From positions 1 through 44,804 of the forward strand of contig JAUIGE010000048.1 of the NCBI GenBank assembly GCA_030430205.1: a stretch of 44,804 bases of DNA. The letters are read 5' to 3'. Shown piece after piece: positions 176 through 44,685 of this stretch (its first letter is position 1; each line of letters opens with the position of its first letter). Made by a program: the position numbers and the translations under genes. Below the pieces are notes generated by a model that had not been told where the DNA came from, did not search any database, and saw nothing but the letters and a program-made list of their open reading frames with translations. Source of the stretch: Bacteroidia bacterium (GTDB taxonomy: Bacteria; Bacteroidota; Bacteroidia; J057).

Positions 176-973
176 CTACACCCCCCACTCCACCCAATAA
201 CCCGTATGCTTCCGAATATTCATTACACGCATATCATCAAAGATGAGATATTGGCCTTTTATGCCAACCAGTGTGGCTTCGCCTTCCGGGACTTTGTCCA
301 GGTTGATGCTTTTTACTTTCAGTGGAAATTGCTGGACGGGATAATTGATAGACCAGATGTCATTATTTTCTGAATAATACTGCTGGAATTCAGGTGCCAG
401 CAAAGCTTTGGCTTTTTCCTTTTCAGCGAGTAAATCAATATGCGTAGCGATTTCATTCTTCAGCATACGCTGCCAGTTGGTCTTGTCAGACAAATGGTCT
501 TTGAGGGCGACTTCTATGTCGCCAGCAAGCTTGCGGTAAGGCGTTTCAGCCAATTTAATGGCCTGGGAAGCTCCCTGATCTATCCATCGGGTAGGCACCT
601 GATCTTTGCGTGTGACGCCTACTTTGAGACCGCTGGAAAGGGCCAGATAGACCACATGCGGCTGCACATGGTGCTTTTTTTCCCACTCAGGGTCTCGGCC
701 TCCGCCTACATGTCCTTCGCATTGCTCGGGATTGATGATGCAAGGCGAGCTTTCAGGAGCATCCCGAAAACAGGGAAAACAGAAACCCTGACCAAAAGAC
801 TTATTGGTCTTCTTACCACAGGATTTGCAATTGATCCGGCCTTCATATTTCCATGAAAGGGGCTTGCCAATCAGGGCGTTCATGTCCACTTCTTCTTCCC
901 CTAAGCTAAGCCTGTATTGTACAGGCTCGCCATATTGGGTGAGCATTTTTTTTAAATTTCCTGAAAATTCCAT
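176..973 (-). CDS. DUF2797 family protein
   Basis: The 265-residue protein matches the DUF2797 family by eye. It has a Cys-rich, likely zinc-binding cluster near residues 50-90: CKSCGKK, then CFPCF, then a Cys before the NPEQCEGH segment. This is followed by the conserved HVVYLALSSGLKVGVTR core and the RWIDQGA motif. The family occurs in several bacterial phyla and its function is unknown; the TRK...RWIDQGA segment is reminiscent of GIY-YIG-like folds, but this is inference. It is the last gene of a probable minus-strand operon (rhomboid, lipoprotein, DUF2797) with gaps of 23 and 14 nt. A heptanucleotide array follows its stop codon. Confidence 0.8.
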   Translation of the reverse strand: MEFSGNLKKMLTQYGEPVQYRLSLGEEEVDMNALIGKPLSWKYEGRINCKSCGKKTNKSFGQGFCFPCFRDAPESSPCIINPEQCEGHVGGGRDPEWEKKHHVQPHVVYLALSSGLKVGVTRKDQVPTRWIDQGASQAIKLAETPYRKLAGDIEVALKDHLSDKTNWQRMLKNEIATHIDLLAEKEKAKALLAPEFQQYYSENNDIWSINYPVQQFPLKVKSINLDKVPEGEATLVGIKGQYLIFDDMRVMNIRKHTGYWVEWGV

Positions 974-11659: not shown

Positions 11660-14512
11660 ATGATAAGAAAATTCTATTTGCCAGCTATTACAGCCGTTTT
11701 AGCTATTGGTTTGTTTTGGGGCTGCAAAAGCACCCAGGACGTGAGCAGCAGCTCCCCTACCCCCTCTATTCCCAACCCAGTCCCTTTTGACTCCGACGCC
11801 CGCATGGGCGTGCTGGAAAATGGCATGCGCTACTACATTCGCCAGAATGGAAAACCTGAGAATTATGCCGAGCTACGCCTGGCAGTCAATGCAGGATCTA
11901 TCCTGGAAGAGGACGACCAGCAGGGACTCGCCCACTTCGTGGAGCACATGTGCTTCAATGGAACCCAAAATTTCCCCAAAAATGAACTGGTGGATTATCT
12001 TGAATCTATAGGCACAAAATTCGGTGCGCACCTCAACGCCTACACTTCTTTTGATGAGACTGTGTATATGCTTCGCGTTCCCACCGACTCTGCCGAGCAG
12101 TTTGAAACCGGGATGCAAATCATGGAAGACTGGGCCCATAATGTGAGTTTTGATGGGGAAGAAATAGATAAAGAACGCGGCGTGGTCATAGAGGAATGGC
12201 GCCTGCGCCTGGGTGCTTCCAACCGCATGAGCCAAAAGACATTTCCTGTCACTTTTTACAACTCTCAGTATGCGAATCGCTTGCCCATCGGCAAGGAGGA
12301 AATCCTCAAAAACTTTGACCATGAAGCACTTAGGCGCTATTACAAAGATTGGTATCGTCCCGATCTGATGGCACTTGTGGCAGTAGGTGATTTTGACCCG
12401 GATGAGGTGGAGAAAATGATCAAGGAGAAATTTGGCCGTATCCCAAAAGCTGTCTCTCCGAAAGAAAGGACCGAGTTCGAAATACCCGATCATGCCGACA
12501 CCAAGGTAGCCATCGTAACCGATCAGGAAGCGACCCGCAGCACAGTTGAAATTCAGTACAAGCACCCTGCACAAAAAATCAACAACCTGGACGACTATCG
12601 CTCCTCCATAGTCTCCCGCCTTTGCAATATGATGCTGGACGCAAGGCTTGAAGAACTGACCAAATCTGCCGCTCCGCCATTTTCCTTTGCCTTTACAGGC
12701 TATGGAAGCATGGTTAAGAATAAGGATTCTTACTCTACCACCGCCTTTGTGCCTTCAGGCGGACACATGAAAGCGCTCGGCGCTTTGGTAGAGGAAAATG
12801 AGCGCGCCGCGCGCTTTGGTTTTACCGAGTCAGAACTCGAAAGAGCCAGGCGCAGCTACCTCTCACAGCTCGAAAGAGCTGTCAATGAAAAAGACAAGAC
12901 GGAGTCTTCCCGTCTGGTATGGCGCTATGTGCGCCATTATCTGAATGGCAGCCCTGCCATCTCCACAGAGGATCAGGATAAACTTGCACAGCAATTTTTG
13001 CCGACCATAACACTCCCCGAAGCCAACCAGCGAATCAAGAGCTGGATCATAGATGAAAACCGCGTCGTGGTGATGCAGGGACCTGAAAAAGAAGGCATTG
13101 AAATGCCTTCAGAAGCAGATGTGCTCAAGCTCATCAACTCCGTCGAGCAGCTCGAACTCAGCGCCTATGAGGACGAAGTGATTCGTGAACCTCTGTTTGG
13201 AGACCGCCCGGATGCAGCTAAGGTGCTCACGGAAAAAGAAGTCGAAAAGCTCGGAATAACCGAAATAGTATTTGAAAATGGCGTCCGTGTCATTCTCAAG
13301 CCTACCGACTTCCAAAACGATCAAATCAGCCTCGCGGCATTTAGTCCTGGCGGACACTCGACTGTCCCCGATGCGCAGTATCAGTCTGCGACCCTGGCTT
13401 CTTCCATCATTGGCAGCTCGGGCCTGGGGCCTTATGATGCCACACAGCTGGAGAAATTCCTTTCAGATAAAAACATCCGCCTGCGGCCCTACATCTCTGA
13501 ACTGGAAGAAGGTTTCCAGGGATCCTCCTCTGTAAAAGATCAGGAAATCTTTTTGCAGATGCTCAACCTGTATTTCACCGCTCCCCGCAAAGACAAAACA
13601 GCCTTTGATGCCATGATGGGAATGCAGCGGACATTTATGGAGAATATGCTTTCCAACCCCTCCACCTACTTCAATGCAGAACGCACCAAATATATGTATA
13701 GCGATCACCCTCGCCGCCAGTTTCCCAGCATGGAAAGCATGGACCAGGTGAAGCTCGATGAAGCCTATTCCATCTATTTGGATCGTTTTTCAGACATCAG
13801 TGATTTCACTTTTATCTTCGTGGGCAATATGGACAAAGCGGAATTCACTTCGCTTTTGGCTGCTTATCTGGGCTCTATTCCCACCAAAAAGCGGGAAGAA
13901 AGCTGGAAAGATGTGGGCGTAAAAATCAAGCCCGGTGTTCATGAGCAAAAAATCTATAAAGGCCGCGAGCCGAAAAGCTCCGTTTACATGATGTTTCATG
14001 GCGATATGGAGTGGAACCTGCAAAACCGCTATGACCTCAATGCGATGGTGCAGGTGCTGCGGATCATGTTGCGCGAGTCATTGCGGGAGGAAAAAGGAGG
14101 CGTGTATGGCGTCAGTGTAAATGCCTCTCCCCAGCGCATCCCTTCACAGAAATATACCATCACCGTGTCTTTTGGCTGCGCGCCAGAAAATGCAGAGGAG
14201 CTGATCAAAACAGCCAGGATGGATATCGAAAAGCTTCAGAAAGAAGGGGCATCTGAAAAAAACCTGCAAAAGGTGAAAGAAACCCAACGCAAAGAGATCG
14301 AAGTGGGCCAAAAGCAAAATGACTACTGGCTCAGGCAGTTGAATTTCATGTATGAAAACGGGCTGGAACCTTCTGCCATGGATTTGGATGCCAAAGACAG
14401 CAAGATTGAAAAGCTCAGCGCTGAGGACATCCGCAAAGCAGCTTTGAAATACCTCGATGGTGAAAACTATATGCAGTTTTTGCTGTATCCGGAGACCAAA
14501 CCGGCGGATTAG
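11660..14512 (+). CDS. M16 family zinc metallopeptidase, lipoprotein
   Basis: This 950-residue protein has a lipoprotein signal (IGLFWGCKS, Cys22). The inverted zinc motif is HFVEH (His92, Glu95, His96), and the third ligand is in KERGVVIEEW (about Glu172). The length and the four repeated alpha/beta domains fit the large PqqL-like M16 peptidases. A catalytic N-terminal half pairs with a degenerate C-terminal half beginning near residue 540 (VEKLGITEIVFENGVRVILK). These enzymes degrade peptides or small proteins, here probably at the periplasmic face of a membrane. The signature RESLREEKGGVYGVSV of the last domain is present. The gene ends just before an octanucleotide array and is convergent with a small secreted protein gene. 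Confidence 0.94.
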   Translation: MIRKFYLPAITAVLAIGLFWGCKSTQDVSSSSPTPSIPNPVPFDSDARMGVLENGMRYYIRQNGKPENYAELRLAVNAGSILEEDDQQGLAHFVEHMCFNGTQNFPKNELVDYLESIGTKFGAHLNAYTSFDETVYMLRVPTDSAEQFETGMQIMEDWAHNVSFDGEEIDKERGVVIEEWRLRLGASNRMSQKTFPVTFYNSQYANRLPIGKEEILKNFDHEALRRYYKDWYRPDLMALVAVGDFDPDEVEKMIKEKFGRIPKAVSPKERTEFEIPDHADTKVAIVTDQEATRSTVEIQYKHPAQKINNLDDYRSSIVSRLCNMMLDARLEELTKSAAPPFSFAFTGYGSMVKNKDSYSTTAFVPSGGHMKALGALVEENERAARFGFTESELERARRSYLSQLERAVNEKDKTESSRLVWRYVRHYLNGSPAISTEDQDKLAQQFLPTITLPEANQRIKSWIIDENRVVVMQGPEKEGIEMPSEADVLKLINSVEQLELSAYEDEVIREPLFGDRPDAAKVLTEKEVEKLGITEIVFENGVRVILKPTDFQNDQISLAAFSPGGHSTVPDAQYQSATLASSIIGSSGLGPYDATQLEKFLSDKNIRLRPYISELEEGFQGSSSVKDQEIFLQMLNLYFTAPRKDKTAFDAMMGMQRTFMENMLSNPSTYFNAERTKYMYSDHPRRQFPSMESMDQVKLDEAYSIYLDRFSDISDFTFIFVGNMDKAEFTSLLAAYLGSIPTKKREESWKDVGVKIKPGVHEQKIYKGREPKSSVYMMFHGDMEWNLQNRYDLNAMVQVLRIMLRESLREEKGGVYGVSVNASPQRIPSQKYTITVSFGCAPENAEELIKTARMDIEKLQKEGASEKNLQKVKETQRKEIEVGQKQNDYWLRQLNFMYENGLEPSAMDLDAKDSKIEKLSAEDIRKAALKYLDGENYMQFLLYPETKPAD

Positions 14513-14514
14513 GA

Positions 14515-14585
14515 GGATGTGCAGATTTGCAGATTAGAGGATGTGAAGATGTGAGGATGATTGCTTTATTCTATTCTGCGAATCT
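14515..14585. repeat. Octanucleotide tandem array with inverted partner (locus B)
   Basis: Six units of 8 nt run from 14515 to 14562: GGATGTGC, AGATTTGC, AGATTAGA, GGATGTGA, AGATGTGA, GGATGATT. After 7 nt, positions 14570-14585 carry on the opposite strand two units in the same period, AGATTCGC and AGAATAGA. These match units two and three with two mismatches in 16. The whole can fold as a hairpin between two convergent genes. The inverted part overlaps the last codons of the minus-strand gene. Confidence 0.72.
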
Positions 14586-15002
14586 GAACTTCAGTTTGAT
14601 GGAGGTAACGGCCCCGCCGCGCTCATGGCGCAGAAAGGCGGGGTCGTTTTCGCCTATCTGAAACCAGAATGCGATGGGCGAGCGCCTTTCTATTTCCAAC
14701 TCTTTTCTACACAAAAAAGAAAGATATCCCGGATCGGGATTGATAAACACCGGCTGATAGGCCTGCTGCGCAAGTGGCAGGCCTAACTGCTTGATGGGGG
14801 AAGTATTTTGTACAGGAAAAAAGGAAGCATCCCGCTGAAAAGAAGCAGTAGAAAAAGGACTTTTTTGCCTGCTCAATTGCAGAGAAAATGTGGATAAATC
14901 CTGAGCAAATCCCCAAATCACAAAGCATTTCAAAAAAAGGAAGATAAAAACGCTTTTTATTGGGTAATTCCTTCTAAATGAGGCTTTTCTTACTTTCATC
15001 AC
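14571..15002 (-). CDS. Small secreted protein of unknown function
   Basis: This 143-residue protein has a basic N-terminus and a signal-peptide-like stretch (SVFIFLFLKCFVIWGFAQ). The C-terminal half, with LSFLCRKELEIERRSPIAFW and GGAVTSIKLKFRF, resembles short secreted proteins of Bacteroidota that carry a CxxE..EK/R motif and end in an aromatic beta strand. I cannot name the family. Its final codons coincide with the inverted arm of an 8-nt repeat array, so the terminal Ala-Glu may be repeat-derived. It is divergent from gyrA by about 145 nt. Confidence 0.65.
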   Translation of the reverse strand: MMKVRKASFRRNYPIKSVFIFLFLKCFVIWGFAQDLSTFSLQLSRQKSPFSTASFQRDASFFPVQNTSPIKQLGLPLAQQAYQPVFINPDPGYLSFLCRKELEIERRSPIAFWFQIGENDPAFLRHERGGAVTSIKLKFRFAE

Positions 15003-24367: not shown

Positions 24368-24376
24368 ATGAAATTG

Positions 24377-24504
24377 GTTTCGGGTTTCGGGTTTTGGGTT
24401 TCGGGTTTTGGGTTTCGGGTTTTGGGTTTCGGGTTTTGGGTTTTGGGTTTTGGGATTCGATTCAGCGCACAGAACACGAAACTCCAAACTCGAAACCCGA
24501 AACT
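24377..24504. repeat. Heptanucleotide array (GTTTYGG)11 with inverted 4-unit partner (locus C)
   Basis: Eleven perfect 7-nt units cover 24377-24453 on the plus strand. The fifth base reads C, C, T, C, T, C, T, C, T, T, T. A 23-nt spacer follows, then four units of the same family on the other strand, also in strict 7-nt steps: CGAAACT, CCAAACT, CGAAACC, CGAAACT (24477-24504). The G-rich strand holds eleven GGG runs with 4-nt TTTY spacers, a canonical G-quadruplex motif close to the plant telomere unit TTTAGGG. It fills the gap between the folA stop and the start of the Wzi-like gene. Confidence 0.93.
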
Positions 24505-44409: not shown

Positions 44410-44546
44410 CAGATGTGCTCATCAAGGTCATTAAGCAAAGGAAACTTCTGGAGCGGATTAGGCGCAAGAGCCAGCCGCTGGGCCGAAATCCGCTCCAACG
44501 ATTCGTTTTATTGCTGCCAAAGGCAGCCTGCAAGGGAAAAATGAAG

Positions 44547-44685
44547 AAAATGGACAATTGAAAATGGAAAATTGACAATGTAAGACCATTCCCTCCATTA
44601 TCCATTGTCCATTATCCATTATCCATTGTCCATTATCCATTGTCCATTATCCATTGTCCATTATCCATTGTCCATTATCCATTAG
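44547..44685. repeat. Heptanucleotide array (CCATTRT)12-13 with inverted degenerate partner (locus D)
   Basis: Thirteen 7-nt units cover 44595-44685. Twelve are CCATTAT or CCATTGT, the sixth base reading A, G, A, A, G, A, G, A, G, A, G, A, and the last is CCATTAG. To the left, 44547-44581 holds five diverged units of the complementary strand in perfect 7-nt steps: AAAATGG, ACAATTG, AAAATGG, AAAATTG, ACAATGT. A 13-nt spacer separates the two. It lies between two convergent genes, beginning 138 nt after the aspartyl-protease stop. Apart from this array I see nothing in the gap from 44410 to 44712. Confidence 0.93.

What the first reader, a model, noticed from the sequence alone, without database searches (positions are those of the whole stretch)
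14515..14585. An octad version of the same inverted-array layout between convergent genes
Six 8-nt units follow the stop of the M16 peptidase gene, and two 8-nt units on the opposite strand lie just beyond, matching with two mismatches in 16. The period has changed from 7 to 8, but the layout (main array, spacer, inverted minor array, convergent gene ends) is kept. The inverted part overlaps the final codons of the neighbouring gene.
Basis: partly seen in the sequence, partly recalled or inferred. Interest (0 to 1): 0.7.

Follow-up and report, generated by a model that had tools for sequence, protein, structure and literature searches.

The report
Octad repeat array between gene ends
Between two converging bacterial genes lies one copy of a short repeat array, of a sort scattered over this genome, that settles against gene ends; similar arrays are already known from other bacteria, and what they do is still unknown.

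Summary
An array of 8-nt units (GATKWGMR) runs from the stop codon of an M16 peptidase gene (TAG 14510-14512, itself in a GATTAG unit) to about 14563, and a 16-nt inverted match (14/16) lies at 14570-14585, over the last codons of the convergent gene. It is one of hundreds of copies: six array families (7-, 8- and 9-nt units) occupy 112 of 932 gene junctions in 1.28 Mb sampled. Inverted partners are common (65 of 158 arrays), the G-rich arm first in all 65. G-rich units mostly lie on the coding strand after stops, C-rich ones before starts (72:33 against 11:37). The same layout is published for G-rich heptads of Xanthomonas and Nostoc (PMC4692102); new here are the octad period, units without G-tracts and several families side by side. 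Positions are not shared with the sister species (2 of 53 orthologous ends, p 0.61) and arrays also sit in divergent junctions, so a dedicated bidirectional terminator is unlikely. The neighbour's C-terminus has about its normal length. Best reading: dispersed, slippage-prone, hairpin-forming repeats tolerated at gene edges, function unproven.

The parts
11660..14512 (+). M16 peptidase gene, 950 aa; its stop TAG (14510-14512) lies in an array-like GATTAG unit (14507-14512)
   Evidence: Pfam PF05193 and PF00675; sequence
14507..14563 (+). octad array (GATKWGMR)n, family E8, G-rich strand on the coding strand of the M16 gene
   Evidence: a related 22-base pattern has 418 hits in the genome (up to 3 mismatches, neighbours overlap) against 1 for the control
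14570..14585 (-). inverted minor arm, 14 of 16 to the reverse complement of 14523-14538; also codes the last residues and stop of the convergent gene
   Evidence: the RNA fold pairs 14522-14533 with 14575-14586
14571..15002 (-). small secreted-protein gene (signal-peptide-like N-terminus by eye), conserved C-terminal segment in the family
   Evidence: homologues in 7 of 12 other genomes of the family, E up to 0.01; no Pfam hit; C-termini
14607..14648 (+). GC-rich hairpin followed by a short T-run, candidate terminator of the M16 transcript, inside the small gene
   Evidence: and fold; not reported by the consensus scan

Best explanation
This is one copy of a population of dispersed short-unit tandem arrays (families of 7-, 8- and 9-nt units here, about 6-10 nt in the sister species). 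An array grows and shrinks by strand slippage and is homogenised and spread within the genome by an unidentified copying process. Copies survive in gene-flanking DNA and expand up to the coding limit, so that the edge unit often supplies the stop codon. Many copies carry an inverted minor array and can form a stem-loop with the G-rich arm 5' and the C-rich arm 3'. At this site the array is part of the 3' untranslated region of the M16 mRNA, ahead of a separate candidate terminator, and has no conserved duty there. Shown: sequence, dispersal, layout, strand rule, lack of positional conservation between the two species compared. Inferred: slippage, spreading, tolerance rather than function.
For: Dispersal: 202+216 hits of the octad pattern against 0+1 for the control; six families, 155 of 170 arrays intergenic where intergenic DNA is 107 of 1284 kb; in 485 kb TRF finds 40 intergenic rows of period 7 and 15 of period 8, against 1 and 6 in five rounds of Markov-shuffled intergenic DNA. 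Lineage-specific turnover: the sister species G001 is as rich in arrays (81 of 481 junctions against 143 of 932, TRF) but mostly of other units, while 160 kb each of G003 and G005 have next to none. No positional conservation: both 2, G000 only 6, G001 only 7, neither 38 of 53 orthologous 3' ends, Fisher p 0.61; one convergent pair has a 2-bp gap in G000 and a 143-bp, mostly array-filled gap in G001. Expansion to the coding limit: stops at E8 ends with the G-rich unit on the coding strand are TGA 27, TAG 21, TAA 10 against TAA 153, TAG 85, TGA 70 without arrays (loci partly picked by the pattern; unbiased sample 8, 5, 2); in two of six G435 loci an array fills the whole gap. Density falls conv > tandem > div per kb (27 in 11.5, 68 in 57.4, 17 in 32.4), as expected if promoters are hurt by them.
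Against: The strand rule (G-rich sense after stops, C-rich sense before starts: 72:33 against 11:37, p 2e-7) and the fixed arm order (65 of 65 in G000, both arms of a pair may count) are more regular than plain tolerance predicts. Fewer canonical terminators at array-bearing ends would fit a termination role. [quoted passage not shown] No copying enzyme was found.
Confidence: 0.6

Rival explanations
1. The array pair is a bidirectional terminator or 3'-end stabiliser: its RNA hairpin stops polymerase or exonucleases from both convergent genes.
For: Stable predicted fold of the junction (z -5.2, the GC-rich hairpin included); highest density in convergent junctions; terminator-like sites at 17 of 163 array ends against 127 of 597 array-less ends (operon-like gaps 33 of 242 apart), shuffles 30 of 400; transcripts of Xanthomonas start or stop at G4-capable repeats more often than at control repeats (PMC4692102, section 15 read).
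Against: Also in 17 of 155 divergent junctions and between the genes of one operon-like pair; no U-tract after the array hairpin here; some arrays are followed by an ordinary terminator hairpin (L002, L009, L012, L087, by eye); junctions not conserved. The comparison includes pattern-picked loci and short tandem gaps on the array side.
Confidence: 0.15
2. At this site only the array is an element; the inverted minor arm is the neighbour's own coding sequence that happens to resemble a unit.
For: The last codons TTCAGATTCGCAGAATAG align with TTCAGGTTGTGGGAGTGA of the G010 homologue at the same protein position; 13 of 835 unrelated 3' ends reach 13 of 16 by chance.
Against: Only 3 of 835 reach 14 of 16; 38 of 93 octad arrays have a two-unit inverted arm within 120 nt downstream, 2 of 93 upstream, controls 0 to 3; the stop of the small gene is again in a GATTAG-like position.
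Confidence: 0.3
3. The arrays are REPIN- or MITE-like elements moved by a transposase (for example a REP-associated tyrosine transposase).
For: Inverted pairs, dispersal, within-genome homogeneity.
Against: The loci of three Y1 transposase matches of G000 and three of G001 hold no array of the six families (TRF shows an octad array in L202 and a hexad array after another gene in L203); array-poor G003 has two such genes; arrays vary in length, and I saw no fixed ends, though I did not search for target duplications.
Confidence: 0.1
4. The arrays derive from a telomerase-like reverse transcriptase (as DRT10) that adds short templated repeats to DNA 3' ends; fold-back of the G-rich end gives the fixed arm order.
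For: Unit lengths and degenerate positions, G-rich-arm-first order; DRT10 makes 9-nt tandem-repeat cDNA (PMC12632851, part of the abstract and passages read).
Against: Only three RVT_1 matches in G000 (one below cut-off) and one in G001 for several array families each; none of the four loci holds an array, and a scan of their 3.2-3.6 kb with the G000 families gave only weak 12-14-nt near matches; opposite arm order in one G435 locus.
Confidence: 0.04

Closest known systems
GGGAATC and GGGGA(C/T)T heptad repeats of Xanthomonas and Nostoc (Rehm et al. 2015, PMC4692102; abstract, sections 14-16 and passages read)
   Same: Dispersed intergenic arrays, inverted convergent pairs (70 cases in Xcc, 75 in Xac; few in Nostoc), G-rich on the coding strand right after or over stop codons and on the non-coding strand before starts, under-represented between divergent genes.
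   Different: Here the period is 8 and the unit has no G-tract, so a G-quadruplex cannot be the common cause; several families with different periods coexist; positions are not conserved between the two species compared; phylum Bacteroidota.
TAACTGA heptad arrays of Beggiatoaceae, Cyanobacteria and a few Bacteroidetes (MacGregor 2015, PMC4679880; passages and section 12 read)
   Same: Intergenic heptad arrays, strand-biased, present in some Bacteroidetes junctions whose close relatives lack them.
   Different: Other unit, mostly placed before start codons in the Beggiatoaceae genome; only one indirect repeat reported there.
Cyanobacterial STRR (short tandemly repeated repetitive) heptanucleotide sequences (recalled; the term seen only in search listings)
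   Same: Degenerate heptad arrays in intergenic DNA.
   Different: Octad here; family membership not tested.
REPINs with RAYT transposases (PMC3116915, search listing only)
   Same: Dispersed inverted pairs between genes.
   Different: No tandem array in REPINs (recalled); transposase association not found here.

Membership tests
G-rich heptad repeats of the Rehm et al. type | unit of 7 nt of the type GGGNATC | tested here: not met
   unit is 8 nt, GATKWGMR
G-rich heptad repeats of the Rehm et al. type | G-tracts of three or more, able to form a G-quadruplex | tested here: not met
   no GGG in the array 14507-14563
G-rich heptad repeats of the Rehm et al. type | dispersed, over-represented in intergenic DNA | tested here: met
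   155 of 170 arrays intergenic
G-rich heptad repeats of the Rehm et al. type | inverted pairs in convergent order | tested here: met
   65 of 158 arrays, G-rich arm first in all 65; this site 14 of 16
G-rich heptad repeats of the Rehm et al. type | G-rich on the coding strand near stops, on the non-coding strand near starts | tested here: met
   72:33 against 11:37
G-rich heptad repeats of the Rehm et al. type | same gene context in related species | tested here: not met
   2 of 53 orthologous 3' ends have arrays in both, p 0.61; few pairs, and G000 and G001 share only about 64% identity in the M16 protein
intrinsic terminator | GC-rich stem directly followed by a U-tract | tested here: not met
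   array hairpin at 14522-14586 has no T-run after it
intrinsic terminator | transcripts end there | not testable with these tools
   no RNA data
REPIN/RAYT | cognate Y1 transposase flanked by the repeat | tested here: not met
   no family array in 6 of 6 loci of G000 and G001; the patterns are those of G000, and TRF found an octad array in the G001 locus L202 and a hexad array in the G000 locus L203, each next to another gene
DRT10-type reverse transcriptase product | reverse transcriptase with a neighbouring RNA holding the unit as template | tested here: inconclusive
   nothing convincing beside 3 of 3 G000 matches and 1 of 1 G001 match, by pattern scan with the G000 families only

The most novel reading that the evidence does not exclude
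Arrays of unrelated units with periods of about 6 to 10 nt obey one rule (G-rich arm first, C-rich arm second, edge unit merged with the stop codon) although several of the units (E8, C7, D7, F9 consensus) have no G-tract for a G-quadruplex. The rule would then come from how the arrays are made: a directional copying process, such as extension and fold-back of the 3' end of one strand, that acts at gene edges and creates new families in each lineage.
Probability: 0.1. Interest if true: 0.75.

Novelty: new variant of a known kind. Interest (0 to 1): 0.4.

Why it matters
The published account of this layout rests on G-quadruplex-capable heptads. Finding the same strand rule, inverted pairing and stop-codon overlap in octads and heptads without G-tracts, in another phylum and with several families in one genome, says that G-quadruplexes are not the general cause and that period 7 is not special. 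It makes the origin of short-unit arrays in bacteria testable by comparing strains. For annotation it matters that array units can supply stop codons and C-terminal tails.

Tried and rejected
Avoidance of divergent junctions: in the first 485 kb sample arrays were in 2 of 59 divergent junctions; in the 1.28 Mb sample it was 17 of 155, so I dropped the claim and kept only the density per kb.

C-terminus altered by the array at this site: not seen. One clear case elsewhere: the G000 protein in L106 ends PRLE-DERIGG, the tail read from array units, where its 81% identical G001 homologue ends PRLE-AKPWEKQVGEKKSK.

Y1 transposases and reverse transcriptases as makers: no array of the six families beside any of them. 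TRF did find an octad array (GAATGATG type) in the G001 locus L202 at about 1035-1083, some 400 nt from the transposase match, and a hexad array (AACTCA) right after another gene in the G000 locus L203 (644-692); such arrays are common in both genomes.

Arm order as a universal law: 5 of 35 G001 cases (four of one TTCAAG-like family) and the G435 locus L295 go the other way.

The phylum scan has its own noise: the control pattern also has hits in 6 of the 395 genomes (G000 1, G163 2, G279 2, G311 8, G422 9, G407 13), so single hits in a genome mean little.

None of their listings named a description of octad arrays of this kind in Bacteroidota; that covers only this library and these terms.

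Weaknesses: genes were called with a home-made hexamer caller, so some ends may be wrong, the more so for G435, G171, G181 and G154, where the G000 model was used; family patterns were written after seeing the data; the octad loci and most of 22 were picked by the pattern and enter, so only searches are free of that choice; the orthologue test has 53 usable of 60 pairs; not every G001 or G000 gene was compared, only those in the stretches taken.

Full report
What is there. The window is contig C59 of a 7.24 Mb Bacteroidota genome (G000; phylum inferred from the relatives named). After the stop codon of an M16 peptidase gene (11660-14512) an array of octads GATKWGMR runs to about 14563. The stop TAG is itself in a GATTAG unit (14507-14512). 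The period-8 match is 28 of 40, reached by 4 of 20,000 shuffles. At 14570-14585, on the opposite strand, 14 of 16 bases match the array; 3 of 835 array-less 3' ends do as well. The predicted RNA pairs 14522-14533 with 14575-14586, and a separate GC-rich hairpin (14607-14648) follows (the fold z-score of -5.2 includes that hairpin).

A genome-wide population. A 22-base octad pattern with up to 3 mismatches has 202+216 hits in the genome against 0+1 for its reversed control (neighbouring hits overlap). An unbiased look with Tandem Repeats Finder at 485 kb shows intergenic rows mostly of period 7 and its multiples and of period 8, which Markov-shuffled intergenic sequence (five rounds) hardly gives. 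I grouped them into families A7 (GGGTTTY), B7 (GCAGTNN), C7 (AGAGARN), D7 (TCCATTN), E8 (GATKWGMR) and F9 (AATCCTGNN). In 1.28 Mb there are 170 arrays of these families, 155 of them intergenic, in 27 of 161 convergent, 68 of 616 tandem and 17 of 155 divergent junctions. The first, smaller sample had 2 of 59 divergent and misled me for a while.

Layout. For octads, a two-unit inverted arm lies within 120 nt downstream in 38 of 93 arrays, upstream in 2 of 93, with controls 0 to 3 (loci partly picked by the pattern). Without any family pattern, 65 of 158 arrays of G000 and 35 of 84 of G001 have an inverted partner at 14/16 or better; the complement-only control gives 17 and 1 hits, the reversed control 1 and 2, the direct control 1 and 1. 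The G-rich arm is 5' in 65 of 65 and 30 of 35 (both arms of one pair can each count). In one locus of the distant genome G435 the order is reversed (L295, by eye). Relative to genes, the G-rich strand is the coding strand in 72 of 105 arrays at stops but 11 of 48 at starts (p 2e-7).

Stop codons. Ends with an adjacent octad array in the G-rich sense use TGA 27, TAG 21, TAA 10, whereas array-less ends use TAA 153, TAG 85, TGA 70 (octad loci partly picked by the pattern; in the unbiased sample TGA 8, TAG 5, TAA 2). The commonest array starts among these 58 lie 2 bases (12 cases) and 6 bases (7 cases) before the end of the stop codon, then 5 bases before it (5 cases) and 3 bases after it (5 cases); in the three overlapping phases the stop codon is part of the first unit. 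B7 ends in the G-rich sense use TAG in 18 of 19, A7 ends in the C-rich sense TAA in 12 of 14. In two of six G435 loci an array fills the whole gap between genes, and in L294 the stop TAA is part of a unit. So arrays reach into the end of the reading frame and often supply its stop. At the site in question this has not visibly changed the neighbour: six homologues with readable C-termini end within about two residues of ours (the seventh, from G003, was not picked up by my filter). In L106 an array does make the tail of a protein.

Evolution. In the same-genus genome G001, arrays with the same layout are as common (81 of 481 junctions against 143 of 932 by TRF), but mostly with other units (GTTYTAG, AATGATAG, TAATGGT, TTCAAG and others); in 160 kb each of G003 and G005, other genera of the family, there are next to none. 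The octad pattern (up to 1 mismatch) occurs in 32 of 395 genomes drawn from the phylum, ours included, with more than ten hits in five: G000 366, G435 31, G154 27, G181 21, G417 17; the control pattern rings in 6 of 395. Of 53 orthologous 3' ends with data in both G000 and G001, both have an array in 2, G000 alone in 6, G001 alone in 7, neither in 38. The M16 gene of G001 ends with an ordinary hairpin and no octad array (by eye). Conversely two junctions of this window with gaps of 2 and 9 bp hold arrays in G001.

Function. Terminator-like sites are at 17 of 163 array-bearing ends and at 127 of 597 array-less non-operon ends (33 of 242 in operon-like gaps); shuffles give 30 of 400. This leaves room for a role in 3'-end formation, but the divergent copies, one copy inside an operon-like pair, the missing U-tract and the lack of conservation speak against a dedicated terminator. 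I found no transposase or reverse transcriptase tied to the six families.

What is known. Rehm et al. 2015 (PMC4692102; abstract, sections 14-16 and passages read) describe heptad arrays GGGAATC / GGGGA(C/T)T in Xanthomonas and Nostoc with the same traits: dispersed, intergenic, paired as inverted repeats in the xanthomonads, on the coding strand within 50 bp of or over the stop codon and on the non-coding strand before start codons, rarer between divergent genes. They favour G-quadruplexes and could not identify a function. MacGregor 2015 (PMC4679880; passages and section 12 read) describes TAACTGA heptads, also in some Bacteroidetes. The present octads have no G-tract, so the shared layout must have another cause, at least here. 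That is the main addition, and the reason for calling this a new variant of a known kind.

Noticed in passing
24376-24504: Heptad array GGGTTTY x12 followed by an inverted minor array, between two genes on the minus strand; same layout, family A7.
   Followed up: yes
44546-44684: Heptad arrays of AATGGAC type followed by the inverted TCCATTR x13; family D7.
   Followed up: partly
128-177: Degenerate heptad array TCTCTTR running into the 3' end of the gene at 176-973 (-).
   Followed up: no
L196 1078-1269 (G000:C73): 29-nt period, 6.6 copies, with the palindrome GGCACTTGGAAGTGCC, next to a gene with a Y1 transposase match; looks like a REP- or CRISPR-like array.
   Followed up: no
L189 755-909 (G000:C1): 46-nt tandem repeat, 3.2 copies, after a Y1 transposase gene.
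   Followed up: no
L277 822-2259 (G000:C60) and L274 1297-2716 (G001:C35): Reverse transcriptase gene preceded by a small gene in both species; looks like the pair of diversity-generating retroelements (recalled resemblance).
   Followed up: no
L118 (G000:C31:23500-28300): An octad hairpin with a shared core repeated in tandem between two genes.
   Followed up: no
L153 1501-1650 (G417): About thirteen near-perfect GATGTGCA units between a stop codon and a bidirectional-terminator-like hairpin in another family of the phylum.
   Followed up: partly
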